Part shown: piece after piece, positions 9,157 through 45,245 of the stretch
Layout of the letters: the number at the start of each line of letters is the position of its first letter
How positions within the stretch are numbered: the first letter of the stretch is position 1
Assembly: GCA_016845585.1 (NCBI GenBank)
Contig: JAERSO010000129.1
Location: 62,001-126,000, forward strand
Reading direction: 5' to 3'
Origin: Acidimicrobiaceae bacterium
GTDB lineage: Bacteria > Actinomycetota > Acidimicrobiia > Acidimicrobiales > Aldehydirespiratoraceae
DNA: 64,000 nt
The notes under the pieces: model-generated
What the model saw: only the letters and a program-made list of their open reading frames with translations
Told to the model about the DNA's origin: nothing
Database searches by the model: none
Made by a program: the position numbers and the translations under genes

Positions 9157-11433
9157 ATGAGTCTCACTGAAGCTCCTGAGTTCGTGCGGGCCGATGGACC
9201 CGACAAGGTGACGGGAAGCGGCCGCTACACGGCCGACATGAATCTGACGGGTCAACTCGTCGCGAAGTTCCGCTACGCCGATGTGGCCCACGCCCGCGTC
9301 ACCAGAATCGATGCTTCGGCCGCGCTGGCGATGCCGGGCGTCTTGGCCGTCCTGACCAGCGACGATGTGCCCGACCTGCGGTATTCGCCGGTGGTGGCTG
9401 ACCGCACGCTGTTCGTGAAGGACGTCGTGCGCTTCGAGGGTGAGGTCGTCGCCGCGGTTGCCGCGGTCGACGCCGCCACCGCCCAGGCCGCGGCCGACGC
9501 GATCGTCTTCGAGTACGACGAATTGCCGATCGTGGACGATCTCGAGGCGGCCCTGGCCGACGGATCGCCGGTCGTGCACGAGGACTGGGAGTCCTACGAC
9601 GTCTCCGGCGACACTGTTCAGCGCCCGAACGTTGCGTCGTTCTCGTCGATCGAGAAGGGCGATGTCGCGGGAGGCCTGGCCGAAGCCGACCATGTCATCA
9701 CCAGCCGATACGTGGCCGACGCCTGCCATGCGCTCCCGATCGAACCGCGTGCGGTCGTGGCCCAGTGGGAGGGCAACAAGGTCACGATCTGGACCTCCAC
9801 CCAGGTTCCCTTCGATGCGCGCAACGGTGTGTGCGAGACCCTGCAGATGCCGGCCAGCCGGGTACGGATCATCGTGCCGCACCTCGGCGGCGGGTTCGGC
9901 GGGAAGTGCGGGTTTCACTTCGAGGCCCACATCGCGGCACTGGCCCGCGCCGCGAAACGTCCGGTGAAGCTGGTGTTCTCCCGGCGCGAGGAGTTCCTCG
10001 CTCCCGACCGGCGCCGCGAAGGCATGATCGTCGACATCACCACCGGGGTGAAGAATGACGGCACGATCACGGCCCGGAAGGGCTGGATCGCCATCGACAA
10101 CGGCGCCTACACCGCTGACGCCGCGTTCTTCCCGCAGCTCGCCGCCATGCACGTGGCCGGCCCGTACGTCTCACCGAATGTGTTCGTCGAGTCGTCGCTC
10201 GTCTACACGAACCATCAGCCGTCCGGCTCGGTTCGGGCCCCGACCGCACCCCAGGCGTGTTGGGCGCTGGAGTCCCACACCGACGAGATCGCTCGCACGA
10301 TCGGAATGGACCCGGTCGACTTCCGTCGCACGAACACCGTCGAGGAGGGCCTCGAGGGTCCGGCTGCGCAGGTGTACGGCGAGATCGGCCTTCGTCGCTG
10401 TATCGACGCCGCCGTCGCCAATTCGGCCTACGGGTCGCCGTTGCCCGACGACGAGGCGGTCGGCGTCGCCATCGGATGGTGGCCGAGCATGCCAGCGCCG
10501 TCCGGTGCGTACATCAAGATCGACGCTGACGGTTCGGGCCAGATCATCACTGGCGCACAGGAGTGTGGGACGGGATCGGTGATGACCCTGCGTTATCTCG
10601 CGGCCGAGGAACTCGGTATGGCACCCGAAGACTTCGAGCTCGTCTACCAGGACACGAGCGCGGCTCCTTATGACATGGGCGCCACCGGCTCGCAGACGTT
10701 GCTCAACAACGGACGCGCCGTCATCGAGGGAGCCAAGGAGATCGCGGCCCAGCTTCGAGATCTGGCCGCCGACCAGCTCGAGGCCGCGGCCGCGGACATC
10801 GTCTTGGCCGACGGTGTTGCTCACGTGAGCGGTACGCCCGATCGCAGCGTTGCCATCGCCGAGTTGGCCGGAATCGCCGCGGAGGGCGAGATGTTGATCG
10901 GCAAAGGCTCGGGTACGCCGCCGGATTGGCCGAGTGTTTCGGCGACCTGTGTCGGAGATCAGGGGATGGCCGGCTGGGCCGGCCCCCAGTTCTCGTGCCA
11001 TGCCGTGCGGGTGCGTCTCGATCGTGAGACCGGCGTCGTCCGAGTGCTCGAGATCTCCGCCGCCCACGATTCCGGCACGATCATCAATCCGATCGCCGCT
11101 CATGGTCAGGTGGAGGGCGGCATCACCATGGGCATTGGTCAGGCGTTGAGCGAGGGCACCGTCTACGGCGACGACGCCAAGCAGCGCAACGCGGGCCTGC
11201 TCGAGTACAAACTGCAGACCGCGGCCGATGCGCCGGTCGTCACGACCGAGTTCATCGAGATCTCGGACCCCAAGGCCGGGCCTCGGGGGGCCAAGGGTCT
11301 CGCCGAGGCACCGAACGTGCCGACCGCGGCGGCCATTGCCAACGCCGTCGCTCAGCTGATCGGCGAACCGGTGCGCCAACTCCCGATGACCCCCGAACGG
11401 GTGTGGATGACGAGCGGGGGAGGCGCGTCATGA
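9157..11433 (+). CDS. Molybdenum hydroxylase large subunit (CoxL/XdhB-like)
   Basis: 758-residue molybdopterin-cytosine-dinucleotide-type large subunit of the xanthine dehydrogenase family. Start taken at ATG 9157 (MSLTEAPEFVRADGPDKVTG); two in-frame ATGs upstream (9118, 9139) are possible. Family features include GRYTADM, the GGGFGGK molybdopterin loop, GSVRAPTAPQ near the active site, TGAQECGTGS and the catalytic Glu in GAKGLAEAPN. The active-site loop lacks the AYxCSFR motif of form I CO dehydrogenase, so it should hydroxylate an aldehyde, purine or N-heterocycle instead. It is translationally coupled to the FAD subunit (ATGA overlap). Confidence 0.85.
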   Translation: MSLTEAPEFVRADGPDKVTGSGRYTADMNLTGQLVAKFRYADVAHARVTRIDASAALAMPGVLAVLTSDDVPDLRYSPVVADRTLFVKDVVRFEGEVVAAVAAVDAATAQAAADAIVFEYDELPIVDDLEAALADGSPVVHEDWESYDVSGDTVQRPNVASFSSIEKGDVAGGLAEADHVITSRYVADACHALPIEPRAVVAQWEGNKVTIWTSTQVPFDARNGVCETLQMPASRVRIIVPHLGGGFGGKCGFHFEAHIAALARAAKRPVKLVFSRREEFLAPDRRREGMIVDITTGVKNDGTITARKGWIAIDNGAYTADAAFFPQLAAMHVAGPYVSPNVFVESSLVYTNHQPSGSVRAPTAPQACWALESHTDEIARTIGMDPVDFRRTNTVEEGLEGPAAQVYGEIGLRRCIDAAVANSAYGSPLPDDEAVGVAIGWWPSMPAPSGAYIKIDADGSGQIITGAQECGTGSVMTLRYLAAEELGMAPEDFELVYQDTSAAPYDMGATGSQTLLNNGRAVIEGAKEIAAQLRDLAADQLEAAAADIVLADGVAHVSGTPDRSVAIAELAGIAAEGEMLIGKGSGTPPDWPSVSATCVGDQGMAGWAGPQFSCHAVRVRLDRETGVVRVLEISAAHDSGTIINPIAAHGQVEGGITMGIGQALSEGTVYGDDAKQRNAGLLEYKLQTAADAPVVTTEFIEISDPKAGPRGAKGLAEAPNVPTAAAIANAVAQLIGEPVRQLPMTPERVWMTSGGGAS

Positions 11434-12326
11434 GCTTCACGATCGCCCGCACCGTCGAGGAGGCCGTCGCCGCGATGGCTGACGGCGCTCGCCCGATCGC
11501 CGGCGGCACCGACCTCGTCGTCGGTGCCCGCCACGGCAAGTCACCGTTGCCCGACGACTTGGTGGCGATCGACCGTCTCGATGATCTCTCCGAGATCCGC
11601 CCCGGAGCCGGGGGTCATCATGTGGGCGCGTTGGTTTCTCACGCTCGCCTGATGACCGATCCACTCATCGTCGGGAGCTACACGGCGCTGGCCGACGCGT
11701 CGGCGCTTGTCGGTTCGCCGTCGACTCGGAACGTCGGGACCCTCGGCGGCAACGTGATGAACGCGTCGCCCGCCATGGACACCGGCGCACCACTGCTCGT
11801 GTTCGGTGCCACGGCGCGACTCGTCGGGCCGGGAATCGAGCGCTCGGTTCCTCTCGCCGACCTGTGGACCGGGCCAGGCTCGACCGTGGCCTCATCGAAC
11901 GAGCTCCTGGTCGGTCTCGATCTGCCGGCGCCCTCCGAGCGCTGCGGTTCGGCGTATGTCCGACTCGAGTACCGCCGTGCCATGGAAATCGCAGTGGTCG
12001 GTGCCGCCGCCGGCGTCACCCTGGCCGACGACGGTTCGGTTGCCTCCGCGTCGGTTGCGCTGTCGGCGGTCGCTCCGACGATCCTCGCGGTCGAGGGGGT
12101 CGAGGGCCTCGCCGGCCTTGCTCCCACCGATGCCGCGGTCAAGGCGGCCGAGCTCGCGTCCGAACAGGCCTCGCCGATCAGCGATCTTCGTGCCGCTGAC
12201 ACGTATCGCCGCCACTGCGTTGGCGTGATGGCCAAGCGAGCGGTGGATGCCGCCTGCCGTCGAGCCGGCGGCGAATCAATCCCTGTCCCTGTGAACCGTG
12301 CGCTCGGAATCGGAGCTGTCTCATGA
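11430..12326 (+). CDS. Molybdenum hydroxylase FAD-binding subunit (CoxM-like)
   Basis: 298-residue FAD subunit of the same hydroxylase. The ATG at 11430 overlaps the large-subunit stop (ATGA), so the 9-codon extension in the track is not used. FAD-binding motifs are ARPIAGGTDLVVGAR near residue 25 and TLGGNVMNASPAMDTGAP near residue 105. A C-terminal CO-deh-flav domain ends in TYRRHCVGVMAKRAV. It passes electrons from the Fe-S subunit to an acceptor. L-M-S gene order differs from the M-S-L order of classic cox operons. Confidence 0.88.
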   Translation: MSFTIARTVEEAVAAMADGARPIAGGTDLVVGARHGKSPLPDDLVAIDRLDDLSEIRPGAGGHHVGALVSHARLMTDPLIVGSYTALADASALVGSPSTRNVGTLGGNVMNASPAMDTGAPLLVFGATARLVGPGIERSVPLADLWTGPGSTVASSNELLVGLDLPAPSERCGSAYVRLEYRRAMEIAVVGAAAGVTLADDGSVASASVALSAVAPTILAVEGVEGLAGLAPTDAAVKAAELASEQASPISDLRAADTYRRHCVGVMAKRAVDAACRRAGGESIPVPVNRALGIGAVS

Positions 12327-12784
12327 GCGAATCATTCGACCTCGACGTCAACGGGGTCTCGTATCCCGTCACGGCCGAGCAGGGCAAGAACCTGCTGTCG
12401 GTCATCCGAGAGGATGTCGGCTTGACCGGCACCAAGGAGGGCTGCGACGACTGCGAGTGTGGCGCCTGCATGGTGCTGCTCGACGGCCAACCCGTGAACT
12501 CGTGCAGCTACCTGGCCGTGCAGGCGCAGGGACGGACCGTCATCACGATCGAGGGCGTGATGCAGGGCGAGGAGATGCATGCCCTGCAGCGCAACCTCCT
12601 GGAGGCGGGTGGTGTGCAGTGCGGGTTCTGTACCCCGGGCATGATCATGTCGGCACACGCCCTGCTCGACCGTGAGACCAACCCCACCTCCGAGGACGTG
12701 AAGATCGGCCTCAGCGGCAACCTCTGCCGCTGCACGGGCTACGCCAAGATTCTCGAGGCAGTCGAGAAGACCGCCGCCGAGTAA
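12323..12784 (+). CDS. Molybdenum hydroxylase [2Fe-2S] subunit (CoxS-like)
   Basis: 153-residue iron-sulfur subunit. The plant-type cluster motif GCDDCECGAC lies near residue 47. The second, all-alpha cluster is formed by CGFC and LCRCTGY near residues 106 and 139. It relays electrons from the Mo site to FAD. The ATG at 12323 overlaps the FAD-subunit stop by 4 nt. The gene ends Glu-stop inside the second copy of the 41-bp repeat, which probably terminates the operon. No XdhC/CoxI-type maturation gene lies in the window. Confidence 0.9.
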   Translation: MSESFDLDVNGVSYPVTAEQGKNLLSVIREDVGLTGTKEGCDDCECGACMVLLDGQPVNSCSYLAVQAQGRTVITIEGVMQGEEMHALQRNLLEAGGVQCGFCTPGMIMSAHALLDRETNPTSEDVKIGLSGNLCRCTGYAKILEAVEKTAAE

Positions 12785-23936: not shown

Positions 23937-23992
23937 GCCCCTTGCGCCAGCGATGACAACATGTCATGCTTCTCTCCGTGGGGATGACAGCC
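23928..23992. promoter_or_regulatory. Nested dyads in divergent LLM/LysR promoter
   Basis: Two inverted repeats share one centre at base 23960. The inner one is atgaca-aca-tgtcat (23953-23967). The outer arms are ggctgtcatgcccc (23928-23941) and tggggatgacagcc (23979-23992), matching at 12 of 14 positions. The two divergent start codons lie within the outer arms, and both genes begin ATGACAGCC. This is a strong candidate for the LysR-binding site that controls both operons. Confidence 0.6.
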
Positions 23993-24877
23993 GACGCACC
24001 CGTCAAACTCGATGTCGAATCGCTGCGCGTCTTTCGTGAGGTCGTGGCCTCCGACGGTTTCACCGCGGCCGGCGACCGCCTCGGCATGACCCAGTCAGCG
24101 GTCTCCCACAAGATCCGTCGCCTCGAGGAACGCCTGGGCATGGAACTCATGCGCCGAGAGGGCCAAACGGTCACCCTCACCGCCGATGGTCGTGATCTCC
24201 TCGCCCATGCCGACGAGATCGTCGATGCCCACGACAAGGCGGTCGACTACTTCCAGCGCAGCGATCTCGCGGGCACGGTGCGGCTGGGCTGCAACGAGGA
24301 GGTGGCGGCCACCCAGCTCGCCGACGTGGCCAGCCGCTTTCGGCGCACCCATCCCGACGTCGCGCTTGAGATCCGCGTCCAGGACTCCGCCTACGTGGCC
24401 GATTGGCTCGACACCGGAGAGATCGATGTGGCGCTGCTGCAGGTACTCGACATCGGGGAGGCCGTTCGCCAGACCGACGATGTCTGGCGTCGTGACGAAC
24501 TCCAGGTCGTCCAGGGTGAGGCCGCCGACTTCGACGACGCCGCCGTCCTGCCCCTCATCTCCTTCGGCCCCCGCTGCCTGTACGAACCATGGCTGACCAC
24601 CGAACTCGACGACGCCGTCCGTCCCCATCGGCACGCGATGGAGTGCCCGAGCATCCAGGGTGTGCAGGCCGCGGTCGAGGCCGGGCTCGGGGTCGCCGTG
24701 CTCAACACCCCCAACCTCACCGACGACATGCGGCCGTGGAACGGCATGGGTCGGCTGCGGCTGCCCACCGTGGCGTTCGTGCTGCGTACCGCCACCGAAC
24801 CCGGCGCCGATGAACTGGTCGACGCCCTTCGTCATCACCTGTCCGAAGCGCTCAGTTCCCAGGGAGTCCGTCCATGA
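23984..24877 (+). CDS. LysR-family transcriptional regulator
   Basis: 297 residues from ATG 23984 (MTADAPVKLDVESLRVFREV). The track's ATG 23966 lies inside the inner operator dyad and is less likely. The N-terminal helix-turn-helix contains ASDGFTAAGDRLGMTQSAVSHKIRRLEERLG. The effector domain is about 200 residues (GTVRLGCNEEVAATQLADV, MECPSIQGVQAAVEAGLGVAVL). It faces the LLM operon and is translationally coupled (ATGA) to the MttB-family gene. It therefore probably controls both in response to the substrate. Confidence 0.85.
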   Translation: MTADAPVKLDVESLRVFREVVASDGFTAAGDRLGMTQSAVSHKIRRLEERLGMELMRREGQTVTLTADGRDLLAHADEIVDAHDKAVDYFQRSDLAGTVRLGCNEEVAATQLADVASRFRRTHPDVALEIRVQDSAYVADWLDTGEIDVALLQVLDIGEAVRQTDDVWRRDELQVVQGEAADFDDAAVLPLISFGPRCLYEPWLTTELDDAVRPHRHAMECPSIQGVQAAVEAGLGVAVLNTPNLTDDMRPWNGMGRLRLPTVAFVLRTATEPGADELVDALRHHLSEALSSQGVRP

Positions 24878-26412
24878 CCGAGACAGCCACCCGCCGGCGC
24901 GGGCGCGGCGCGCGCCGTGATGCCCGCACGGCGTACACCCAACGGTTCCTCCCCGAGATGGATCGTGGCATCCCGTACCTCGACATGCTGGTGCCCGAGC
25001 AGGTCGAGATCGTGCACGAGCACACGATGAAGCTGCTCGAGACCACCGGCATCGAGTTCCGTGACGACGAGTCGATCGCCATGTGGCGCGCCGCCGGTGG
25101 AGACCAGGTGACGATCGACGGGTACCGCGTTCGTATCGACCGTGGACTCCTGATGGAGCTGGTGGGGAAGGCGCCCAGCGAATACACGATGATCGGCCGC
25201 GATCCGGAGCGGACCGTCACCCTCGGCGGCCGCAAGTCGATCTTCACCCCGGCCTACGGGGCGCCGTTCGTGCTCGACCTCGAGGGCAACCGTCGCAGCG
25301 CGCTGCTCGGCGACTTCGACAACTTCGCCAAGATCGCGTACATGACGCCGGCCATGCAGATGACCGGCGGTGTGTTGTGCGAGCCGATGGACGTGCCCGT
25401 TCCGCATCGTCATCTCCGCATGACCTACAGCTTGATGAAGCACTCGACGAAACCCTTCATGGGATCGGTGACGTCGCGGGAGCGGGCCGAGGACTGCTTG
25501 GCGATGACGAAGATCCTGTTCGGCGACGAGTTCGTCGGCCAGAACACCGTCATGACCAGCCTGGCCAACGGCAACTCGCCGCTGGTGTGGGACTCCACCA
25601 TGCTCGACGCGGTGAAGGTGTACAGCGGAGCCAACCAGGCGATGTTGTTCAGCCCATTTGTGCTCGGCGGTGCCTCGACACCCGCCTCGGTGATCGGCTC
25701 GGTGGTGCAGATCAATGCCGAGGCGCTCGCCGGTGTCGCCTTCTCACAGATCGTGCGAGCCGGCGCCCCCGCCGTCTACGGGCAGTGGCTGGCCACCGTG
25801 TCGATGAAGACCGGCGCCCCGATGGCCGGCACCCCCGAGATCGACCAGATGAACCTGCTCGTCGGCCAACTCGCTCGTCACTACGACCTGCCGTGGCGCT
25901 GCTCGGGCATGTGCTCGGCGTCGAAGCAGGTCGACGCTCAGGCCGGCTACGAGGCGGCGCGCAACATGTACGGCGTCGTGCTCGCGGGCGCCAACTTCGT
26001 GCTCTCCACCACCGGCTACCTCGAATCGGCGCTGTGTCAGAGCTACGGCAAGGCCGCCCTCGATGGCGAACAGGCCGAGATGTTCCGCGTCTTCGCCGAG
26101 GGCATCAAGTTCGACGAGCTCGATGCATCGCTCGAGGCGATGGGTGAGGTCGAACCCGGCGGGCATTTCCTCGGCACCTCGCACACCCTCGAAAACTTCC
26201 AGTCCGCCTTCTCGATGCCCGAGCTGATGGACAGCGACGGGTTCGAGCAGTGGATGGCGGCGGGCGGCGATGATGCCAATTCCCGCGGCCTGGCCAAGGC
26301 CAAGAAGCTCCTCGCCGACTATGAGGAGCCCACCCTTGCTGATGACATCGATGCGGCGTTGTGCGAGTTTGTCGAACGCCGCATCACCGAGATCCCGGAG
26401 ACACTCGAATGA
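24874..26412 (+). CDS. MttB-family (non-pyrrolysine) corrinoid methyltransferase, copy 1
   Basis: 512-residue member of the trimethylamine methyltransferase MttB superfamily. The frame has no internal amber codon, so it belongs to the non-Pyl branch, whose characterised members (MtgB, MtpB, MtcB) demethylate glycine betaine, proline betaine or carnitine. Segments include HEHTMKLLETTGIEF, YGAPFVLDLEGNRR, MTPAMQMTGGVLCEP and GHFLGTSHTLENFQ. The N-terminal 20 residues are Arg-rich. It overlaps LysR and the following lyase gene by 4 nt each. The substrate may be a hydroxyproline betaine (see findings). No corrinoid protein is encoded in the window. Confidence 0.85.
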   Translation: MTETATRRRGRGARRDARTAYTQRFLPEMDRGIPYLDMLVPEQVEIVHEHTMKLLETTGIEFRDDESIAMWRAAGGDQVTIDGYRVRIDRGLLMELVGKAPSEYTMIGRDPERTVTLGGRKSIFTPAYGAPFVLDLEGNRRSALLGDFDNFAKIAYMTPAMQMTGGVLCEPMDVPVPHRHLRMTYSLMKHSTKPFMGSVTSRERAEDCLAMTKILFGDEFVGQNTVMTSLANGNSPLVWDSTMLDAVKVYSGANQAMLFSPFVLGGASTPASVIGSVVQINAEALAGVAFSQIVRAGAPAVYGQWLATVSMKTGAPMAGTPEIDQMNLLVGQLARHYDLPWRCSGMCSASKQVDAQAGYEAARNMYGVVLAGANFVLSTTGYLESALCQSYGKAALDGEQAEMFRVFAEGIKFDELDASLEAMGEVEPGGHFLGTSHTLENFQSAFSMPELMDSDGFEQWMAAGGDDANSRGLAKAKKLLADYEEPTLADDIDAALCEFVERRITEIPETLE

Positions 26413-27398
26413 GTCCCTTGCTGCACGGCGTCTGCGCCGCCATGAGTTCACCCTTCGACGACACCGGCGAGCGGTTGGACGATGGCCGGCTGCGCGACCA
26501 CATCGAGAGTCTGATCGACGCCGGTGTGCACGGGCTCGTGCTCTGCGCCGGCACCGGCGAGTTCGCGTTCTTGTCCGACGAGGAGCGTGACCGAATGATC
26601 GGCCTCGGCTGCGAGATCGTCGATGGTCGTGTGCCCGTCATCGCGCAGACTTCGGCCATCACCACCACCGACGCGATCGAGCGCACCCGCAAGGCCGCCG
26701 ACATGGGGGCCTCGGCCGCCATGGTGCTGCCGCCGTACTTCGAGGGACCGTTCGAGCGGGGTGTGATGTTCCACTACGAGAAGCTCGCCCAGGCCATCGA
26801 CATTCCGATCGTGCTCTACAACATCCCCGCGGCCAGCGGTGTCGACATCAACCCCGACATGTACCGCCAGCTCCTCGCCATGGAGAACATCGACTACATC
26901 AAGGAGTCGACGGGCGACCTGATCCGGCTCCAGAAGGTCGTCGGCATCGGTGGCCATGTGCTGGCGGGTGCCGACCCGTTGGCGCCCTACGCAGCCATGG
27001 CCGGTGCGGCCGGTTGGATCTGGGGCGCCGCCAACGTGATGCCCCACGAGTGCGTGATGCTGTGGGACCTCGTCCAGAAGGGCGACCATCAAGGGGCGCT
27101 CGACCTGTGGGCCAAGATGCTGCCGGCCAACATGTTCTTCTGGGAGAACAATGTCGACGCCGAGTACAACTCGTGTGTCAAGACCGCCACCAACATGGTG
27201 GGCCGTCCGGTCGGGCCGTGTCGGCGACCCGTCATGCCCATGACGCGGCAGGGCCGACTCGCCCTCCAAACCGCGCTGTCGACGCTTCCGGTCAATGGCA
27301 CCAACCGCGACACGCTCGTGTTCCGCGAGTGGGACGACGAGAAGGACTGGCTCGTTCAGATGACACACACTTCCGGCGTGAGCCGAACGAAGGGATAA
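26409..27398 (+). CDS. Dihydrodipicolinate synthase-family lyase/deaminase
   Basis: 329-residue class I aldolase-type protein. ATG 26409 overlaps the MttB stop (ATGA), so the 16-codon extension in the track is discarded. Schiff-base Lys165 (YIKEST) and Tyr137 (LYNIP) are present, as is CAGTGEF. The Arg after YNxP that binds the substrate carboxylate in true DapA (YNVPSR) is replaced (YNIPAAS), so lysine biosynthesis is unlikely. Family members include the pyrroline-4-hydroxy-2-carboxylate deaminase of hydroxyproline catabolism, which would suit the neighbouring ALDH and FAD oxidase. Confidence 0.82.
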   Translation: MSPLLHGVCAAMSSPFDDTGERLDDGRLRDHIESLIDAGVHGLVLCAGTGEFAFLSDEERDRMIGLGCEIVDGRVPVIAQTSAITTTDAIERTRKAADMGASAAMVLPPYFEGPFERGVMFHYEKLAQAIDIPIVLYNIPAASGVDINPDMYRQLLAMENIDYIKESTGDLIRLQKVVGIGGHVLAGADPLAPYAAMAGAAGWIWGAANVMPHECVMLWDLVQKGDHQGALDLWAKMLPANMFFWENNVDAEYNSCVKTATNMVGRPVGPCRRPVMPMTRQGRLALQTALSTLPVNGTNRDTLVFREWDDEKDWLVQMTHTSGVSRTKG

Positions 27399-27402
27399 GG
27401 GA

Positions 27403-28896
27403 ATGCCTCTCGACTTCGATCCCGCGGCGCTCGCCGCTTCCGTCACTCCGCCCACTCGCATGATGATCGGTGGGCGCTCCGTGGAGGCCGCGAGCGGCAA
27501 GACCTTCGCCACGCTCAACCCGGCCACCGGCACAGAACTCGCCCAGATCGCTGAAGGCGCCCAGGAAGACATGGACCGCGCCGTCGCGGCCGCACGAGAC
27601 GCGTTCGACAACGGCCCCTGGGGTCGGATGGCGCCGGCCGACCGGCGCAACCTGCTCAAGCGGTTCGCCCTGCTCATCGAGGCCCACAGCGACGAACTCG
27701 CCGTGATGGAGACCCTCGAAGCGGGCAAGCCGATCTTCGACACGTCCACCATCGACCTGCCCGAGACCGTGGCCTGTCTGATGTGGCACGCCGAGCTGGC
27801 CGACAAGGTCTACGACATGGCCACCCCGTCGGGCCCCGGCGTGGTGTCGACGATCGTGCGTGAGCCGATCGGCGTTGTGGGCGCGGTGCTGCCGTGGAAC
27901 TACCCGCTGATGATGGCCGCGTGGAAGATCGGGCCGGCGCTGGCCGCCGGCAACACCATGGTGCTGAAGCCCGCCGAGCAGACGTCGATGTCGACGATTC
28001 GCATCGCGGAACTCGCCACCGAAGCCGGGCTTCCCGACGGAGTGATCAATGTCGTGCCCGGATTCGGCGAGACCGTGGGCGCGGCCCTCGGATTGCACGA
28101 CGGCGTCGACTGTGTCGGGTTCACCGGATCGACTGAGGTCGGCCGGATGTTCCTCTGCTACGCCGCCGATTCCAACCTCAAACGCGTGCTGCTCGAATGT
28201 GGCGGCAAGTCGCCGATGCTCGTGCTCCCCGACGCCGAGGACCTCGACAAGGTGGCCGCCAACGCCTGCGAATCGATCTTCTGGAACGCCGGACAGAACT
28301 GCTCCAGCAACTCCCGGCTGATCCTTCACGAGTCGATCGCGGACGAGACCCTCGATCGAATCGATGAAGCGATGCGTGAGTGGGTGCTCGGTGATCCCCT
28401 GGATCCCCACACGCGTATGGGCGCCATCATCGAGCCGGCCCACATGGACAAGATCCTGTCCAACATCGAGAAGGCCAAAGACGAAGGCGCCACCGTTCGC
28501 TGCGGCGGCAACCAGACCCGTCAGGGCTCCGGCGGCTGGTTCGTCGAACCCACCATCTTCACGGGTGTCACTGCCGACATGACCGTCGCTCGCGAGGAGG
28601 TCTTCGGGCCCGTGCTCTCGGTGTCGACCTTCACCCACGCCGACGAGGGCATCGCGATGGCCAACGACACCGACTACGGCCTCCATGCCTCGGTGTTCAC
28701 GTCCAACGTACGCTCCGCCCACCTCGCCAGCCGCATGCTCAAGGCCGGCACCGTTTCGGTCAACTGCTACAGCGAAGGCGACATGACGACACCGTTCGGT
28801 GGCTACGGCCTCAGCGGATTCGGTGGTCGGGACAACGGCATCCACGCCCACGAGCAGTACACCGAGACCAAGACGATCTGGCTGGATCTCTCCTGA
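27403..28896 (+). CDS. Aldehyde dehydrogenase (NAD(P)-dependent)
   Basis: 497-residue aldehyde dehydrogenase. The cofactor site is GFTGSTEVG, the general base is Glu265 (LLECGGKSP) and the nucleophile is Cys300 (NAGQNCSSN). The active-site entry PWNYPLMMAAWK and the C-terminal PFGGYGLSGFGGRDNG are standard. Similarity to betaine aldehyde, gamma-aminobutyraldehyde and 2-oxoglutarate semialdehyde dehydrogenases cannot be separated by eye. It lies 4 bp after the DHDPS-like gene, so oxidising that enzyme's semialdehyde product is the simplest proposal. Confidence 0.87.
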   Translation: MPLDFDPAALAASVTPPTRMMIGGRSVEAASGKTFATLNPATGTELAQIAEGAQEDMDRAVAAARDAFDNGPWGRMAPADRRNLLKRFALLIEAHSDELAVMETLEAGKPIFDTSTIDLPETVACLMWHAELADKVYDMATPSGPGVVSTIVREPIGVVGAVLPWNYPLMMAAWKIGPALAAGNTMVLKPAEQTSMSTIRIAELATEAGLPDGVINVVPGFGETVGAALGLHDGVDCVGFTGSTEVGRMFLCYAADSNLKRVLLECGGKSPMLVLPDAEDLDKVAANACESIFWNAGQNCSSNSRLILHESIADETLDRIDEAMREWVLGDPLDPHTRMGAIIEPAHMDKILSNIEKAKDEGATVRCGGNQTRQGSGGWFVEPTIFTGVTADMTVAREEVFGPVLSVSTFTHADEGIAMANDTDYGLHASVFTSNVRSAHLASRMLKAGTVSVNCYSEGDMTTPFGGYGLSGFGGRDNGIHAHEQYTETKTIWLDLS

Positions 28897-28945
28897 TGAC
28901 TCTGCGCTCACTCGGCGCGGCGGCCGAGACCCGGTCTTGGGCGCC

Positions 28946-30256
28946 ATGACCTCAGTGACCATCACACCGGCCTACGACCGGCAGAACGGCTGGCTCGAGA
29001 TCCTCGGGCCGCAACCGGATGCGGTCGTTCTCACGGGTGACCTCGAGGCCGACCATGTCGTGATCGGGGCGGGGTATGGCGGCCTTGCCGCGGCACGGCG
29101 CCTGGCCGAGCTCGATCCGTCGGCATCGGTGGTGCTCATCGAGGCCGATCGGCTCGGAAACAACGCGGCCGGTCGATGCTCGGGCTTCATCATCGACCAC
29201 GCCCACAACATCCGCGCCAAGGGATTCGCCGACGACACCGACAACGCCAAGCGGCAGATCGCGCTCAATCGTGCAGGCGTCGACTGGCTCGACGAGATCG
29301 TGCATCAGCAGGGCATCGAATGTGACTGGCGCCGGGAAGGCAAGATCCACGCGGCCGCCTCCGAGAAGGGCGAGGCCACGCTTGCCGGCTTCGCCGAATC
29401 GCTCGACGCGGTCGACGAGGACTACCACCTCTACGACGCGGCCGAGCTGGAACGCCGATTCGGCACGAGCTTCTACCGGTCGGGTCTCCACGCTCCCCAC
29501 AGCGTGATCGTGAACCCTGCGTCGCTGGTGATCGGCCTCGCGTCGACCATGCCGGAGAACGTGCAGGTCTTCGAGTCGTCCATGGTCACCGACTTCGAAT
29601 TCGGCCCTCCGCACACCCTCCGGACGGCACAGGGAACCGTGCGCACGCCTTCCCTCGTGATCGCGGCCAACGGGTTCGGCGAAGGATTCGGCCTGTTCAA
29701 GAACTCGCTGATCCCGCTGATCACGTGGGGGTCGATGACCCGACCGATGACCGCTGCCGAGGTGGCCGAGCTCGGCGGCGAGGACAACTACGCCATCATC
29801 CCCGCCCACCCGGCCGGCACCACGGTGCGGCGCAGACCCGACAACCGGATCCTGATCCGCAACCAGTACACGTTCAGTCGTCGCTCCAACATCACCAGGG
29901 GCGTGGAGGCAGTGAAGCGCGTGCACGAGACGTCGTTCCGCAACCGGTATCCGATGCTGCCCGACGTCGAGTTCGAGTATTCGTGGGGTGGAGCATTGGC
30001 GCTCAGCCGAAACGGCGAGGGCGTGTGCGGCAAGGTCGCCGACGGGGTGTGGGCCACGATGGCCTACCAGGGCACCGGAATGGCCAAGGGCACGATCTCG
30101 GGCAAGTACCTGGCCGAACACATGATGGGTGACGACGATCCGTTGATGGGGTTGCTCGCGGGCTCGCCGAGCCGCAACTTCCCCGACCCCTTCAACCAGT
30201 GGGGCGTGCGCATGAACTCCCGCTGGCGGCGCTGGCAGGCAGGAGTCGAGGAATGA
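28946..30256 (+). CDS. DAO-family FAD-dependent amine/amino-acid oxidoreductase
   Basis: 436-residue FAD enzyme. ATG 28946 (MTSVTITPAYDRQNGW) is chosen. The 49-residue extension in the track overlaps the ALDH gene and has no RBS. The dinucleotide fold is VVIGAGYGGLAAARRLAE, followed by GRCSGFIIDH. Substrate-domain pieces are YSWGGALALSRNG and the C-terminal AYQGTGMAKGTISG that closes the FAD site. It resembles gamma-glutamylputrescine oxidase and D-hydroxyproline dehydrogenase-type enzymes that oxidise secondary amines. Its stop overlaps the sulfatase remnant start by 4 nt. Confidence 0.83.
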   Translation: MTSVTITPAYDRQNGWLEILGPQPDAVVLTGDLEADHVVIGAGYGGLAAARRLAELDPSASVVLIEADRLGNNAAGRCSGFIIDHAHNIRAKGFADDTDNAKRQIALNRAGVDWLDEIVHQQGIECDWRREGKIHAAASEKGEATLAGFAESLDAVDEDYHLYDAAELERRFGTSFYRSGLHAPHSVIVNPASLVIGLASTMPENVQVFESSMVTDFEFGPPHTLRTAQGTVRTPSLVIAANGFGEGFGLFKNSLIPLITWGSMTRPMTAAEVAELGGEDNYAIIPAHPAGTTVRRRPDNRILIRNQYTFSRRSNITRGVEAVKRVHETSFRNRYPMLPDVEFEYSWGGALALSRNGEGVCGKVADGVWATMAYQGTGMAKGTISGKYLAEHMMGDDDPLMGLLAGSPSRNFPDPFNQWGVRMNSRWRRWQAGVEE

Positions 30257-30885
30257 ACAACCTGCTGGTGATCATGGCGGACCAGTTCACGCCGTTCATG
30301 ATGGGCTGCTACGGCCACCCGACGGTCATCACGTCGAATCTCGAGATCCCGCTCCTCGTCAGCGGACCCGGCGACCGCGAGCAGTCCGTCATCGACACTC
30401 CGGTGTCTCTGCTCGACGTCGCTCCGACGCTGCTCGAACTCGCCGAGGTCGCCGCTGCCGCCCGCCTGCCCATGGAGGGCCGCAGTCTTCTCGGTTCACT
30501 CGACGATGACCGCGAAGTCGTCTCGGAATACCACGCGGAGGGCGTCTTCCGGCTGTGCTTCATGGTGCGCCATGACCGCTACAAGTACGTGTGGTTCGAG
30601 GACGAAGCGCCGCAACTGTTCGACCTGCACGAGGATCCCGGTGAGTGGACGAACCGAGCGGCTGACCCGTCGCTTCGATCCGTGAGAGCAGACCTCCACG
30701 CTCGCCTGATCAACCGGTTCGACGTCGACGACCTCGGTCGCGATGTGGCCGGAAAGATCGCCCAGAAGCGAATCGTGCGTGAGGCGATGCATCGAAACGA
30801 CACGCACTGGGATCATCAGCCGTTCTTCGATGCCACGAAGCAATACGTCCGCACTGATGCCACGAAGAGCTATGTCCGCACCTGA
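30253..30885 (+). pseudogene. Internally deleted choline-sulfatase-like protein
   Basis: 210 residues in an intact frame. Residues 1-31 (MNNLLVIMADQ, GCYGHPTVIT) match the start of choline sulfatases, including the first metal-ligand Asp. Residue 32 onward (IPLLVSGPGDREQS, SLLDVAPTLLELA) matches their C-terminal third, joined directly. About 200-270 residues expected between are missing, including the formylglycine Cys/Ser motif and remaining metal ligands. It cannot be an active sulfatase of the known type. The C-terminus ends in a tandem DATKxYVRT repeat. It may be a fresh in-frame deletion or a reused binding protein. Confidence 0.75.
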
Positions 30886-30897: not shown

Positions 30898-31677
30898 ATG
30901 AGCCGCGATCTGTCCGTAGACCTCACCGGCAAGGTCGCGGTCGTGTCCGGCGGTTCGTCAGGGATGGGCGCCGCGATCTGTGAACGATTCGCCGCCTCGG
31001 GTGCGTCGGTCGTGGTCGGGGGCCGCAACCCCGAACGAACCGCCGAGGTCGTCGATGGGCTGAAGTCCACCGGCGCCACGGCACTCGCCTGGCTCGGTGA
31101 TGTGGCTGACTCGACCAACGCCGACGAGATGGTCGATGCCGCGGTCGAGGCCTTCGACGGGATCGACATCGTGGTGAACGCGGCAGGCGTGATCCACCGG
31201 GCTGACGCGAACGGCACGAGCGACGAGGATTGGCATCGAGTGATGTCGGCCAACGTCGACGGCACGTTCTTTCTCTCTCGTGCGGCGATCCCCGCCCTGC
31301 GAGCGCGAGGTGGGGGAGCAATCATCAACATCAGCTCGACGTGCGGGTTGGTGGGCTCGGCGGGGCTTGCCGCGTATTGCGCGTCGAAGGGAGCCGTCAC
31401 GAATCTCACCCGCGCGATGGCGCTCGATCATGCGGCCGAAGGAATCCGTGTCAATGCCATCTGTCCCGGCTCGGTGGACACGCCGATGCTCGTTTCGGAG
31501 CATCCGGAAGGCCGCAGCGCCGCGGATGTCTTCGCGTCGAACCTCGCATCGATTCCCGAGGGGCGCATCCCCGAGCCAGTGGAGGTGGCCGACCTCGCCC
31601 TGTTCCTGAGCTCAACTGCGAGTCGCCACATCAATGGTGCCAATCTCTCGCTCGACGGGGGATACACGGCCCAATGA
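30898..31677 (+). CDS. SDR-family oxidoreductase
   Basis: 259-residue classical short-chain dehydrogenase. The cofactor motif is SGGSSGMG near residue 18. NAAGVIHRA replaces the usual NNAG. The catalytic Ser lies in NISSTCG and Tyr-Lys in YCASK. The C-terminus ends LSLDGGYTAQ as in 3-oxoacyl reductase-like members. It overlaps the following SDR by 4 nt. Twelve bases separate it from the sulfatase remnant, so it belongs to the LysR-MttB operon. The substrate is unknown. Confidence 0.85.
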   Translation: MSRDLSVDLTGKVAVVSGGSSGMGAAICERFAASGASVVVGGRNPERTAEVVDGLKSTGATALAWLGDVADSTNADEMVDAAVEAFDGIDIVVNAAGVIHRADANGTSDEDWHRVMSANVDGTFFLSRAAIPALRARGGGAIINISSTCGLVGSAGLAAYCASKGAVTNLTRAMALDHAAEGIRVNAICPGSVDTPMLVSEHPEGRSAADVFASNLASIPEGRIPEPVEVADLALFLSSTASRHINGANLSLDGGYTAQ

Positions 31678-32432
31678 GCGACTTCACCGGCATCACCGCC
31701 GTCGTCACCGGCGGTGCGCAGGGAATCGGACGGGCGATCGCCGATCGGCTCGCCGCCGACGGGGCCGACGTCGTCGTCGGTGACCTCCGTGACCCGACCG
31801 ACCTCGGACCGAACCAGCGATGGGTGCACCTCGACGTGACGTCGGAGGAGTCGGTCGCCGCGCTGGCGGCCGAGTGCGGTGATGCCGTCGGGGTGCTGGT
31901 CAACAACGCCGGCATCATGTTCGAAGCGTCGATCGCCGACCAGACCGTCGAGCAATGGGACACCGCCATGGCCGTCAACCTGCGTGGCCCGTGGCTGATG
32001 ACGAAGGCGCTGCTCCCACGGCTCACGGCCGACGGAGGAGCGGTGGTCAACATCGGATCGATCGAGGGCATCGGGTCCAACCCGCTCCACACTGCGTATT
32101 CCGCGTCGAAGGGCGGCGTGCACGGATTGACGGCCGCCATGGCGGTCGACCTCGGGCCGATGGGCGTGCGCTGCAATGCCGTCGCACCCGGCTGGATCGA
32201 CACGGCCCTGAACCGCGAGTACATCGATCGGCTGCCCAACCGCGACCAGGCCGTGGCCGAGTTGGGCCGGCTCCACCCCGTGGGCCACATCGGCGATCCC
32301 GCCGACGTGGCGTCCGTGGTCGCCTTCCTCGCCGGCCCCGACGCCCGATTCGTGTCGGGCCAGGTCGTCGTGGTCGACGGCGCTCGCACCAGCAAGCTCA
32401 GCCTGCCGCCCAGTCTGTCGCCAGAGGCCTGA
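31674..32432 (+). CDS. SDR-family oxidoreductase
   Basis: 252-residue short-chain dehydrogenase. ATG 31674 overlaps the upstream SDR stop (ATGA); the longer ORF in the track at 31230 is out-of-frame shadow plus this gene. Motifs are TGGAQGIG, NNAGIMFEA, the Ser of NIGSIEG and Y-x3-K in YSASK. The two tandem SDRs differ considerably, so they are not a recent duplication. It is the last gene of the plus-strand operon; the next gene starts after 39 bp. Confidence 0.85.
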   Translation: MSDFTGITAVVTGGAQGIGRAIADRLAADGADVVVGDLRDPTDLGPNQRWVHLDVTSEESVAALAAECGDAVGVLVNNAGIMFEASIADQTVEQWDTAMAVNLRGPWLMTKALLPRLTADGGAVVNIGSIEGIGSNPLHTAYSASKGGVHGLTAAMAVDLGPMGVRCNAVAPGWIDTALNREYIDRLPNRDQAVAELGRLHPVGHIGDPADVASVVAFLAGPDARFVSGQVVVVDGARTSKLSLPPSLSPEA

Positions 32433-37078: not shown

Positions 37079-37527
37079 TGGCCTACGGCTACTCCACCGA
37101 CCCCGAGCTCGACCGGTCGACCAACCGGGTCATGACGCTCGGCGCCGTGCTGCTGCTCGCCATGGCGGCAGCGTTCCCGCTGTACCTCGCCTACGAGCCC
37201 TCCGCCCGTGAGGACGCCCGCGCCGAACAGCTCTCGTCGCTCGCTCACGAGGGTGAGTCCATCTGGGCGTTCAACTGCGCCTCGTGCCACGGCGACGACG
37301 GTGAGGGTGGCTCGGCGCCGGCCCTCAACGCGAAACAGTTCCTCCAGTCCGCGACCGACGAGCAGATCCAGTTGCTGATCGCCGTCGGCGTGCCCGGCTC
37401 CGCCATGGGCGCCTACTCGCAGGACTTCGGCGGACCGCTCACCTCCGAGCAGATCAAAGCCATCAGCACCTTCCTCCGGTCACTCGAAGACGAGGCGCCG
37501 GACTTCCCGAATTGGCGTAATCCATGA
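37078..37527 (+). CDS. Membrane-anchored mono-haem cytochrome c
   Basis: 149-residue cytochrome c. One N-terminal anchor helix (VMTLGAVLLLAMAAAFPLYL) is followed by a c-type domain with haem motif C67-A-S-C70-H71. The likely Met ligand is in VPGSAMGAYSQDFGGPL. ATG 37078 shares a base with the Rieske stop (TGATG). It fits the small c-type subunit of the bc complex or the soluble-side shuttle to the downstream di-haem cytochrome. Confidence 0.87.
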   Translation: MAYGYSTDPELDRSTNRVMTLGAVLLLAMAAAFPLYLAYEPSAREDARAEQLSSLAHEGESIWAFNCASCHGDDGEGGSAPALNAKQFLQSATDEQIQLLIAVGVPGSAMGAYSQDFGGPLTSEQIKAISTFLRSLEDEAPDFPNWRNP

Positions 37528-39161
37528 CAGACACAGAATCCAAGAAACCAGCGAGCCAGGACGAGGGCGCTCCGAAGCTCCTCGATTTCGAGAAGGAATC
37601 GATACGGGTCCTCCACTTCACGTGGATCGCCTTCTTCATGACGTTCTACGTCTGGTTCAACCTGGCGCCCATGTCGACCACGATGAGGGGTGATCTCGAC
37701 TGGCTCACCAAGGAGCACGTCAAGATCCTCCTGATCTGCAATGTGGCGTTGACGATCCCGGCCCGCATCATCGTCGGTGCGCTGATCGATCGTCTCGGTG
37801 CCCGCATCGTGTTCACCGGGCTCATGATCGTCATGTCGATCCCGGCGGTCGTGTTCGCCTTCGCCGACTCGTTCACCCAGATGATGATCTCCCGCCTCGC
37901 GCTCGGCAGCGTCGGCGCCGGCTTCGTCATCGGCATCAAGATGGTCGCCCAGTGGTTCCCGCCCAAGTACGTCGGGCGGGCCGAGGGCTTCTACGCCGGC
38001 TGGGGCAACTTCGGCTCGGCATTCGCCGCCATGACGCTTCCGTGGTTCGCGCTCACCGTGCTCGGCAACTGGTTCGACATGGGTGACGATGCGTGGCGCT
38101 GGGCCATGGCGATCAATGGTCTCGTGCTCGGCGTCTACGGCGTCATGTACTACTTCCTCGTCCGTGACGTGCCCGACGGCCGGACGTTGACGAAGACCAA
38201 GAAGGCCACGCCGATGCTGTGCACGTCCTACAAGGACCTCGTGCAGTACCTCATCTGGTCGATCCCGCTGGTCGGCGCTCTCGGCGTGCTCGCCTGGCGG
38301 ATCAGCAACGTCAAGGTCGACGGCGACTACATCATCAGCGACACGGGCCTCTACACGATCTACGCCATCCTGGCCCTCGTCTACGTCGGCCATGTCGCCA
38401 AGACGCTCAATGTCAACCTGCCGTACCTCAGGGCCGGCGTGCCCGAGGACGAGAAGTACCACTTCGGCAGCGTGGCAGCGCTGAACTCGACCTACTTCGC
38501 GAACTTCGGCGCCGAGCTCGCCGTCGTGTCGATGCTGCCCGCCTTCTTCGAGGCGACCTTCGAGCCGCTCCGCAGCGGTGACGGGAGTCCGTTGGTGACC
38601 GCCACAGTCGCCGGTCTCGTCGCCTCCTCGTTCGCCTTCGTGAACCTGGTTGCCCGACCGCTCGGTGGCTACCTGTCGGATCTCGCGTCGAGCCGCAAGC
38701 GGACCATGCTGATCTACATCGGCGGCATCGTCGTCGGCTTCTTCCTGATGGGATTCATCGCAAAGTGGGGCACCGGCGTCGACGACGACGGCCTCCGCAA
38801 CGTGGTGCCGATGTTCGGCGGCGTGACCTGGCTGGTCATCGCCGTGGTGATCACCATCTTCGCCTCCATCTTCGTGCAGGGCGCTGAGGGTGCAACCTTC
38901 GCCATCATCCCGATGGTCAACAAGCGCATGACCGGCCAGATCGCCGGGATGGCCGGCGCCTACGGAAACGTCGGCGCCGTCATCTACCTCGTGATCTTCT
39001 CGCTGGTCGACTCCCGCACCTTCTTCTTCATCCTCTCGGCCGGCGCAGCGGTCAGCTTCCTCATCACGTGGCTGATGCTCGAAGAGCCGAAGGATGCATT
39101 CGCCGCCGACTTCGACGACGAAGTGACCCCGGCCGAGCCCGAGAGGACAACCAATGGCTGA
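37524..39161 (+). CDS. NarK-type nitrate/nitrite MFS transporter 1
   Basis: 545-residue major facilitator of the nitrate/nitrite porter family, with twelve or more helices. The FMTFYVWFNLAPM opening, a GWGNFGSAFAAMTLPW nitrate-signature-like segment and NVGAVIYLVIFSL in the C-terminal half are as in NarK/NasA proteins. A long loop between helices 6 and 8 makes it larger than E. coli NarK. It either imports nitrate with protons or exchanges nitrate for nitrite. The start overlaps the cytochrome c stop by 4 nt. Confidence 0.82.
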   Translation: MTDTESKKPASQDEGAPKLLDFEKESIRVLHFTWIAFFMTFYVWFNLAPMSTTMRGDLDWLTKEHVKILLICNVALTIPARIIVGALIDRLGARIVFTGLMIVMSIPAVVFAFADSFTQMMISRLALGSVGAGFVIGIKMVAQWFPPKYVGRAEGFYAGWGNFGSAFAAMTLPWFALTVLGNWFDMGDDAWRWAMAINGLVLGVYGVMYYFLVRDVPDGRTLTKTKKATPMLCTSYKDLVQYLIWSIPLVGALGVLAWRISNVKVDGDYIISDTGLYTIYAILALVYVGHVAKTLNVNLPYLRAGVPEDEKYHFGSVAALNSTYFANFGAELAVVSMLPAFFEATFEPLRSGDGSPLVTATVAGLVASSFAFVNLVARPLGGYLSDLASSRKRTMLIYIGGIVVGFFLMGFIAKWGTGVDDDGLRNVVPMFGGVTWLVIAVVITIFASIFVQGAEGATFAIIPMVNKRMTGQIAGMAGAYGNVGAVIYLVIFSLVDSRTFFFILSAGAAVSFLITWLMLEEPKDAFAADFDDEVTPAEPERTTNG

Positions 39162-40758: not shown

Positions 40759-41597
40759 GTTTCCGTCTCGTCCTCGGCATCGGCATCTTCGCCCTGCTCC
40801 TCACCGCGGCCAGCCTGCCCGCCCAGGCGGCCCAGTATCCCGCTGCGCCCCTGGCGCAGGATGCTGCCGCTGGGGCACAGGTCTACGCCGACAACTGCGC
40901 GTCGTGCCATCAGGCCGGAGGCATCGGCCTGGTGGGCACGTTCCCGCCTCTCGCCGGCAATCCCAATGCGGCTGACACCGACTACGTCGAAGACGTGGTC
41001 CGCAATGGCCTGAGTGGTGAGATCGATGTCCTCGACGTCACCTATGACGGCACGATGGCGTCCTTCCCGGACCTGTCCGACGGCGAGGTCGCCGATGTCG
41101 TCGCCTATGTGGCGACGCTCGCCGACAGCGATCCGACGGCGGTTCCCGATGCTGAACCCGACGTCGTCGAGCCCGGCGACATCGGAGAGGGACGAGACCT
41201 GTTCATCGGCGCGGACCGGTTCGAGAATGGCGGCGGCGCATGCGTCGGCTGTCACACGGCCGGCGACGTCGGCAACCTCGGTGGTTGGAGCCTCGGCCCC
41301 GACATCACCGACAGCCATGAGTCGCTCGGTGGAGATGTCGGGCTGGCGGCCTGGCTGTCGAGCCCGGCTTCGGCCACGATGCGGCCGGTCTTCAACGACC
41401 GTCCGATGACCGACGACGAGATCGCCGATGTCGTCGCCTTCCTGGCTGACGCACCAACGCAGTCGAAGCCAACTGACCCCGGGGACGGGTTGATCTACGC
41501 CGGCGTGGCCGGACTCATCGTCCTCATCGGTGGCATGGCCATCGCCTGGCGCGGCATGCGCCAGACCTACGTCGAGCGGTTGAGGAGCAAGCGATGA
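40755..41597 (+). CDS. Di-haem cytochrome c, NarC-like
   Basis: 280-residue exported di-haem cytochrome c. A signal peptide ends near AQAAQYP, the first haem motif is C48-A-S-C51-H52 and the second is CVGCH in the second domain. Met ligands are likely in TMASFPDLS and RPMTDDEIADVV. A C-terminal helix (GLIYAGVAGLIVLIGGMAI) anchors it. Position directly before narG mirrors NarC of Thermus, where a di-haem cytochrome links to the nitrate reductase. The true start is ATG 40755, overlapping NarK2. Confidence 0.85.
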   Translation: MSFRLVLGIGIFALLLTAASLPAQAAQYPAAPLAQDAAAGAQVYADNCASCHQAGGIGLVGTFPPLAGNPNAADTDYVEDVVRNGLSGEIDVLDVTYDGTMASFPDLSDGEVADVVAYVATLADSDPTAVPDAEPDVVEPGDIGEGRDLFIGADRFENGGGACVGCHTAGDVGNLGGWSLGPDITDSHESLGGDVGLAAWLSSPASATMRPVFNDRPMTDDEIADVVAFLADAPTQSKPTDPGDGLIYAGVAGLIVLIGGMAIAWRGMRQTYVERLRSKR

Positions 41598-45235: not shown

Positions 45236-45245
45236 GAGCACGATC

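What the first reader, a model, noticed from the sequence alone, without database searches (positions are those of the whole stretch)
24874..30256. MttB next to DHDPS-like, ALDH and DAO genes: candidate hydroxyproline-betaine pathway
Hydroxyproline catabolism uses a FAD dehydrogenase of the DAO family, a DHDPS-family pyrroline-hydroxycarboxylate deaminase and 2-oxoglutarate semialdehyde dehydrogenase. Exactly these three families follow an MttB-type demethylase in one operon. The DHDPS-like protein keeps the Schiff-base Lys and Tyr but has lost the DapA carboxylate Arg. An N-methylated hydroxyproline as substrate would explain all four.
Basis: inference. Interest (0 to 1): 0.7.

Follow-up and report, generated by a model that had tools for sequence, protein, structure and literature searches.

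The report
Probable hydroxyproline-betaine degradation operon (Acidimicrobiia)
In marine and wastewater Acidimicrobiia, six enzymes that always travel together probably break down a methylated, hydroxyproline-like osmolyte, starting with vitamin-B12-dependent removal of a methyl group; no member has been tested in the laboratory.

Summary
The four genes are real and correctly placed, but they are two thirds of the unit. MttB-DHDPS-ALDH-DAO is followed by two short-chain dehydrogenases (SDR1, SDR2). All six families recur in nearly every complete locus among 32 found, all Acidimicrobiia. The choline-sulfatase remnant inside the window's copy is absent from the others. The hydroxyproline-betaine idea gains support. 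On Cereibacter sphaeroides 2.4.1 plasmid pB the same six families sit with an HpbD ortholog (hydroxyproline-betaine epimerase, 78% to PDB 4e8g) and a betaine ABC transporter. In Paracoccus and Rhizobium the DHDPS-ALDH-DAO trio sits with a 4-hydroxyproline epimerase. An unlinked HpbD-clade epimerase occurs in 26 of 30 cassette genomes and 0 of 244 sampled non-cassette genomes of the class. The window genome has one stand-alone corrinoid protein for nine MttBs. Against simple membership: the proteins are not HypD, HypH or HypO. Their S. meliloti counterparts match at 29%, 26% and not at all; the ALDH is PuuC-like; and the DHDPS falls in a clade apart from the HpbD/4HypE-linked one. The exact substrate (4- or 3-hydroxyproline betaine, or a relative) and the SDR roles remain inferred. 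New variant of a known kind.

The parts
23966..24877 (+). LysR-family regulator, overlapping MttB by 4 bp; present in this position in many but not all relatives
   Evidence: Pfam PF00126/PF03466; synteny
24874..26412 (+). MttB-superfamily methyltransferase without a pyrrolysine (in-frame TAG) codon; predicted corrinoid-dependent demethylase of the quaternary betaine
   Evidence: PF06253 612 bits; no internal stop; clade with Mesorhizobium MttB, near the HpbD-cluster MttBs, apart from glycine-betaine MtgB
26409..27398 (+). DHDPS/NAL-superfamily class I lyase (K165, Y137 kept; Arg replaced by Ala); predicted ring-opening deaminase/dehydratase
   Evidence: PF00701; alignments and tree
27403..28896 (+). 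PuuC/KauB-type aldehyde dehydrogenase; predicted to oxidise the semialdehyde product
28946..30256 (+). DAO-family FAD amine/imino-acid oxidoreductase; predicted to oxidise the ring C-N bond
   Evidence: PF01266; model resembles glycine/sarcosine oxidase, DMGDH and dye-linked L-proline dehydrogenase folds
30253..30885 (+). decayed choline-sulfatase remnant (short N-terminus joined to C-terminal part); not part of the conserved unit
   Evidence: TIGR03417 positions 311-486 only; absent from relatives
30898..31677 (+). SDR1, classical SDR (YCASK), NADP-type motif (VVVGGR); conserved member
31674..32432 (+). SDR2, classical SDR (Y..SK), NAD-type motif (VVVGDL); conserved member
9184..12784 (+). 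xanthine-dehydrogenase-like Mo hydroxylase trio; possible accessory, next to the cassette or to the HpbD-like gene in several relatives

Best explanation
A catabolic cassette for the betaine of a hydroxylated, proline-like cyclic amino acid, most likely hydroxyproline betaine. Proposed order: ProU-type import; 2-epimerisation by an HpbD-clade enzyme encoded elsewhere in the genome; removal of one N-methyl group by MttB onto the single shared corrinoid protein MtgC and on to tetrahydrofolate through MtgD; adjustment of the ring hydroxyl by the SDR pair (NAD-type SDR2, NADP-type SDR1, possibly C4 inversion through a 4-oxo form); oxidation at the ring C-N bond by the DAO flavoenzyme; ring-opening dehydration/deamination by the DHDPS-like lyase through Lys165, releasing methylamine or ammonia and a 2-oxo semialdehyde; oxidation by the ALDH, giving 2-oxoglutarate if the substrate is 4-hydroxyproline betaine. 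Shown here: gene order, conservation, family membership, catalytic motifs, co-occurrence of HpbD-like and MtgC, context in other phyla. Inferred: substrate, step order, SDR role, methylamine release.
For: The six families recur in nearly every complete locus among 32 from a genome scan, all Acidimicrobiia. In C. sphaeroides 2.4.1 pB, MttB (50%), both SDRs, DAO, ALDH (55%) and DHDPS sit with an MR/MLE protein 78% identical to 4e8g/4izg/4j1o and with ProV, ProW, ProX. Mesorhizobium plasmids carry MttB (62-65%), SDR1 (52%), SDR2 (53-55%), ALDH, DAO, DHDPS and ProU. In P. methylovorus the trio sits with a 4-hydroxyproline epimerase scoring 521 bits against a 376 cut-off and betaine ABC genes; Rhizobium RCAM05350 is similar. 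HpbD-like at E<=1e-110 occurs in 25 of 29 cassette genomes plus the window's own, and in 0 of 244 non-cassette genomes of the class. It groups with HpbD and away from the c3HypD-labelled branch at 100/100, keeps Y56, K164, K266 and W321, and its best PDB hits are the three HpbD-group sequences. In G266 and G270 it adjoins ProV and ProW. MtgC is in 29 of 29 cassette genomes; the window genome has one PF02607 protein against nine MttBs. Precedents: MtpB demethylates proline betaine and shares its corrinoid protein with MtcB and MtyB (PMC12155760); aerobic MtgBCD (PMC12478193); an SDR acting on C4 of cis-4-hydroxyproline (PMC8914325).
Against: The DHDPS-like protein is in a clade of its own (100/99), not in the HpbD/4HypE-linked clade, and S. 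meliloti AK57 holds both, so the two may differ in substrate. S. meliloti HypD, HypH and HypO are 29%, 26% and not detectably similar. Only one DAO is present where the known pathway has separate demethylase and oxidase steps (recalled). The HpbD-like gene is unlinked in the window genome and was not found at this level in four cassette genomes, including one 96% complete MAG. The SDR roles are conjecture. Co-occurrence is not corrected for relatedness.
Confidence: 0.58

Rival explanations
1. The same pathway logic, but for a different cyclic amino-acid betaine: 3-hydroxyproline betaine, a cis/4S isomer, or a hydroxypipecolate betaine. The DHDPS clade with the window protein would be specialised for it.
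For: The DHDPS clade of the window protein co-occurs with proline-racemase-family proteins nearest trans-3-hydroxyproline dehydratase models (Leisingera 423 bits, Mesorhizobium 356, cut-off 550); both DHDPS clades in one S. meliloti plasmid; the DAO scores against the L-pipecolate oxidase model (123 bits, far under its 600 cut-off).
Against: All these scores are below curated cut-offs; the racemase-family proteins carry Ser/Cys or Cys/Cys, not the Ser/Thr of S. meliloti HypY; the co-occurring epimerase is HpbD-clade.
Confidence: 0.22
2. A PuuB/PuuC-like amine route for an acyclic betaine (carnitine, trimethyllysine or homoserine-betaine type): MttB demethylates, DAO makes an aldehyde, ALDH oxidises it, the DHDPS-like protein is an aldolase on a 2-oxo acid.
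For: ALDH nearest PuuC, KauB and BADH models; DAO scores with aminophosphonate oxidoreductase and pipecolate oxidase models; several DHDPS subfamilies without Arg are aldolases (general knowledge).
Against: The ALDH and DAO group with homologs in HpbD and 4-hydroxyproline-epimerase clusters rather than with E. coli PuuC and PuuB; HpbD-like co-occurrence.
Confidence: 0.15
3. Glycine betaine or choline catabolism, with the MttB as another MtgB and the other genes auxiliary.
For: The family includes MtgB; a choline-sulfatase remnant lies inside the window's operon.
Against: The same genome has a complete MtgB/RamA/MtgD/DUF1638/MtgC-like cluster whose MttB groups with S. meliloti 4yyc at 100/97, apart from the cassette MttB; the remnant is absent from all relatives; DHDPS and SDRs are not needed for glycine betaine.
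Confidence: 0.05

Closest known systems
Hydroxyproline/proline betaine pathway with HpbD (Zhao 2013; Kumar 2014; from memory and as cited in PMC4113996 and PMC5144071)
   Same: HpbD-clade epimerase, DAO, DHDPS-family deaminase, ALDH, ProU-type import
   Different: MttB is proposed as the demethylase in place of Rieske/FAD demethylases (recalled, not checked); two conserved SDRs; DHDPS, DAO and ALDH of other subfamilies; epimerase unlinked in most Acidimicrobiia
trans-4-hydroxyproline hyp operon (S. meliloti pSymB; P. denitrificans)
   Same: same three enzyme families after epimerisation
   Different: HypD 29%, HypH 26%, HypO no hit; no MttB, no SDRs
MtpB, proline betaine methyltransferase of Eubacterium limosum (MttB superfamily)
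   Same: non-pyrrolysine MttB acting on a prolyl betaine with a shared corrinoid protein (PMC12155760)
   Different: anaerobic acetogen, demethylation only; sequence not available here, so orthology untested
Aerobic MtgBCD glycine betaine demethylation (Ruegeria pomeroyi; PMC12478193)
   Same: MttB-type enzyme with MtgC/MtgD and reactivation proteins; the window genome carries such a cluster
   Different: substrate glycine betaine; this MttB is in another clade

Membership tests
MttB superfamily, non-pyrrolysine quaternary-amine methyltransferase | PF06253 domain over the full length | tested here: met
   612 bits, residues 7-508 of profile 1-500
MttB superfamily, non-pyrrolysine quaternary-amine methyltransferase | no in-frame TAG (pyrrolysine) codon | tested here: met
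   only the terminal TGA
MttB superfamily, non-pyrrolysine quaternary-amine methyltransferase | candidate corrinoid partner protein in the genome | tested here: met
   single PF02607 protein at C129:139.8 kb; MtgC in 29/29 cassette genomes; physical pairing untested
MttB superfamily, non-pyrrolysine quaternary-amine methyltransferase | methyl transfer from a quaternary amine | not testable with these tools
   needs enzyme assay
MtgB (glycine betaine methyltransferase) | grouping with MtgB-type sequences | tested here: not met
   own MtgB-cluster protein groups with 4yyc (100/97); cassette MttB in a separate clade
[quoted passage not shown]
   K165, Y137
[quoted passage not shown]
   29%, 56 bits to S. 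meliloti HypD; separate clade at 100/99
alpha-ketoglutarate-semialdehyde dehydrogenase of the hyp operon (HypH) | grouping with HypH | tested here: not met
   26%, 63 bits; HypHs branch apart; PuuC model 548 bits, KGSADH models 356 and 346
D-hydroxyproline dehydrogenase (HypO) | sequence similarity to HypO | tested here: not met
   no significant hit; same general fold family only
HpbD (hydroxyproline betaine 2-epimerase), unlinked gene of the window genome C165:23734-24840 | grouping with solved HpbDs against the c3HypD-labelled branch | tested here: met
   100/100 split; best PDB hits 4e8g, 2pmq, 4h2h (352 and 314 bits) ahead of 4mgg (257); that these entries are HpbD or c3HypD is recalled, not checked
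HpbD (hydroxyproline betaine 2-epimerase), unlinked gene of the window genome C165:23734-24840 | acid/base lysines and betaine-contacting Tyr56 and Trp (residue roles recalled) | tested here: met
   K164, K266, Y56, W321 conserved
HpbD pathway cluster | epimerase linked to the catabolic genes | tested here: not met
   unlinked in the window genome; beside ProV/ProW in G266/G270 and the XDH trio in G259/G260

The most novel reading that the evidence does not exclude
An aerobic, cobalamin-dependent route to hydroxyproline betaine in which MttB replaces oxygenase/flavin demethylation, a paired NAD/NADP SDR inverts the C4 hydroxyl, and a new DHDPS subfamily opens an N-methyl pyrroline and releases methylamine instead of ammonia, so that the second methyl group leaves with nitrogen.
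Probability: 0.22. Interest if true: 0.75.

Novelty: new variant of a known kind. Interest (0 to 1): 0.55.

Why it matters
The JBC 2025 paper counts MthB as only the sixth MttB-superfamily member with an identified physiological substrate (PMC12155760). This assigns a likely substrate class to a clade found in uncultured marine and wastewater Acidimicrobiia and in rhizobia, and ties B12-dependent demethylation in aerobes to a nitrogen osmolyte other than glycine betaine. A matching gene set is also on plasmid pB of C. sphaeroides 2.4.1, a laboratory strain, so the idea can be tested directly.

Tried and rejected
Filing DHDPS, ALDH and DAO as HypD, HypH and HypO: rejected on identity and trees. 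Arg loss as a HypD signature: rejected, since the HpbD/4HypE-linked clade keeps Arg. Sulfatase remnant as part of the unit: rejected, absent from relatives. AlphaFold model of the DHDPS-like protein: mean pLDDT 52, not used. DAO model: pLDDT 72.5, Foldseek gives only the general sarcosine/glycine oxidase and proline dehydrogenase fold group. N-methylglutamate-synthase-like genes as a marker of methylamine release: 22/30 cassette against 9/48 MtgC-positive non-cassette genomes, but the window's own copy has an in-frame stop, so only weak support. One search (PF09130) was a wrong family choice. Zhao 2013 and Kumar 2014 are not held, so statements on their demethylases rest on memory. Homarine was considered but only a thin literature search was made and no gene of such a pathway was tested.
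Full report
What is there. The window lies in a 4.67 Mb, 176-contig genome; the relatives that carry the cassette are, where named, metagenome-assembled genomes of Acidimicrobiia or Actinomycetota. On the + strand, LysR (23966-24877), MttB (24874-26412), a DHDPS-family protein (26409-27398), an aldehyde dehydrogenase (27403-28896) and a DAO-family flavoprotein (28946-30256) are packed with 4-bp overlaps or short gaps. They are followed by a decayed choline-sulfatase fragment (30253-30885) and two classical short-chain dehydrogenases, SDR1 (30898-31677) and SDR2 (31674-32432). The Schiff-base Lys and Tyr are present and the DapA Arg is Ala.

The unit is six enzymes. A genome-collection scan with the DHDPS profile gave 32 loci. 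In almost every locus whose sequence is complete the order is MttB-DHDPS-ALDH-DAO-SDR1-SDR2; in L020 and L021 the SDR pair is divergent, and a few loci lose a gene at a contig end or in my gene caller. The sulfatase remnant occurs only in the window. In the class as a whole the DHDPS is rare, 3 of 247 genomes at E<=1e-50. SDR1 carries an NADP-type motif and SDR2 an NAD-type motif in the copies whose N-terminus is intact, as expected of an oxidise-then-reduce pair.

The same gene families elsewhere. Among the plasmid collection the best MttB hits (62-65% full length) and the best SDR1 and SDR2 hits fall in the same two Mesorhizobium clusters, which also hold ProU-type betaine transport genes, proline-racemase-family proteins and the DHDPS, ALDH and DAO genes. 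On C. sphaeroides 2.4.1 plasmid pB, MttB, both SDRs, DAO, ALDH, DHDPS and ProVWX surround an MR/MLE-superfamily protein that is 78% identical to P. denitrificans 4e8g/4izg/4j1o. I recall these entries and 2pmq as HpbD, the hydroxyproline-betaine 2-epimerase of Zhao 2013 and Kumar 2014; the papers are not held here, but PMC4113996 and PMC5144071 cite them for that activity. P. methylovorus has the trio with a 4-hydroxyproline epimerase over its NCBIfam cut-off (521 against 376) and betaine ABC genes; Rhizobium RCAM05350 is alike. Mesorhizobium 131-3-5 and Yoonia add MttB to the trio. [quoted passage not shown]

The missing epimerase. The cassette has no epimerase, but the window genome encodes an HpbD-like protein at C165:23734-24840, 48% identical to the C. 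sphaeroides one. At E<=1e-110 it is in 25 of 29 cassette genomes plus the window's own, and in none of the 244 class-sample genomes that lack the cassette; Fisher p is 2e-32 against all of them and 8e-17 against the 48 that have MtgC. These values ignore relatedness. The protein groups with HpbD and away from the branch of 4mgg, which I recall as a cis-3-hydroxyproline dehydratase (100/100). Its best PDB hits are 4e8g, 2pmq and 4h2h, well ahead of 4mgg, and orthologs keep Y56, K164, K266 and W321 (one row of that printout is a neighbouring gene picked in error). In G266 and G270 it adjoins ProV and ProW, and in G259 and G260 it adjoins the Mo-hydroxylase trio that flanks the cassette in other genomes. 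It was not found at this level in four of the 30, among them G246 (96% complete).

The methyl acceptor. The window genome has nine MttB-family proteins but one PF02607 corrinoid protein, in an MtgB/RamA-like/MtgD-like/DUF1638-like/MtgC-like cluster just outside the window. The gene names there are my reading by analogy with PMC12478193. MtgC is in all 29 cassette genomes tested and in 51 of 247 of the class. One corrinoid protein serving several MttBs has a precedent in E. limosum, where MtpB, MtcB and MtyB use MtqC (PMC12155760). The cassette MttB is not MtgB: it groups with the Mesorhizobium proteins (100/99), near the HpbD-cluster clade and Aminobacter, while the genome's own MtgB groups with S. 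meliloti 4yyc (100/97).

The proteins are not the classical ones. S. meliloti HypD, HypH and HypO from pSymB match at 29%, 26% and not at all; these anchors were assigned by position around the 4-hydroxyproline epimerase of pSymB, since that record is unannotated here. The ALDH scores best with PuuC (548 bits; KGSADH models 356 and 346) and the DAO with weak aminophosphonate oxidoreductase and pipecolate oxidase matches. In the DHDPS tree the Acidimicrobiia proteins join Leisingera, Agrobacterium, S. americanum, Mesorhizobium and R. phaseoli proteins in a 100/99 clade, apart from the clade linked to HpbD, MttB and 4HypE and apart from hyp-operon HypDs. S. meliloti AK57 carries both clades, which hints at different substrates. 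The ALDH and DAO trees place the Acidimicrobiia proteins with those of the betaine clusters, although several forks are open and long branches limit the outgroup.

Likely mechanism. Import, 2-epimerisation, one demethylation by MttB/MtgC/MtgD, adjustment of the ring hydroxyl by the SDR pair, ring C-N oxidation by DAO, dehydrating deamination by the DHDPS-like lyase, and oxidation by ALDH. An SDR acting stereospecifically at C4 of hydroxyproline is known from BDH2 (PMC8914325). With one DAO and no second demethylase, the lyase may release methylamine rather than ammonia. N-methylglutamate-synthase-like genes and a Tmm gene near HpbD-like in G270 are compatible with this (the N-methylglutamate synthase reading is mine, from a partial glutamate-synthase match), and such genes are in 22 of 30 cassette against 9 of 48 MtgC-positive non-cassette genomes, though the window's own copy has an in-frame stop. 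These last steps are inference.

Verdict. A conserved Acidimicrobiia cassette of a known general kind, not described in the held papers that I searched, with a new combination: an aerobic MttB-first variant of hydroxyproline-betaine-type catabolism with an SDR pair and a distinct DHDPS subfamily. Substrate class likely, exact substrate open.

Noticed in passing
window 30253-30885: Choline-sulfatase remnant: a short N-terminal piece joined in frame to the C-terminal part, overlapping the DAO stop; absent from all relatives. Decay or insertion specific to this lineage.
   Followed up: partly
window 48817-54172: Second MttB with a Rieske oxygenase and a DMGDH-like FAD/GCV_T protein, followed by an M24 peptidase-family protein (54175-55482) and, further on, a ProU-type betaine transporter (58340-63246): another quaternary-amine locus.
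   Followed up: no
G000:C129:133953-140082 (L006, L054), just beyond the window: Compact cluster of MttB, RamA-like ferredoxin protein, pterin methyltransferase, DUF1638-like protein and the genome's only PF02607 corrinoid protein; looks like an actinobacterial mtg cluster.
   Followed up: partly
window 9184-12784: Xanthine-dehydrogenase-like Mo hydroxylase trio; its relatives sit beside the cassette (L004, L010-L012, L014, L016) or beside the HpbD-like gene (L100, L101). Role unknown.
   Followed up: partly
G000:C102:45629-64407 (L064, L065): A second, more divergent HpbD-clade MR/MLE protein (42%, Tyr56 not kept) near an M24-type protein and phytanoyl-CoA-dioxygenase-like proteins; another MttB and a full-length sulfatase-like protein lie 15-20 kb away.
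   Followed up: no
L047 (C. sphaeroides 2.4.1 pB): MttB sits next to an HpbD ortholog in a laboratory strain; I could not check whether the original hpb papers discuss this MttB.
   Followed up: partly
window 41594-48009: Respiratory nitrate-reductase-like genes (large molybdopterin subunit, NarH-type beta subunit and following genes) close to two transporter-like genes (37524-40758).
   Followed up: no
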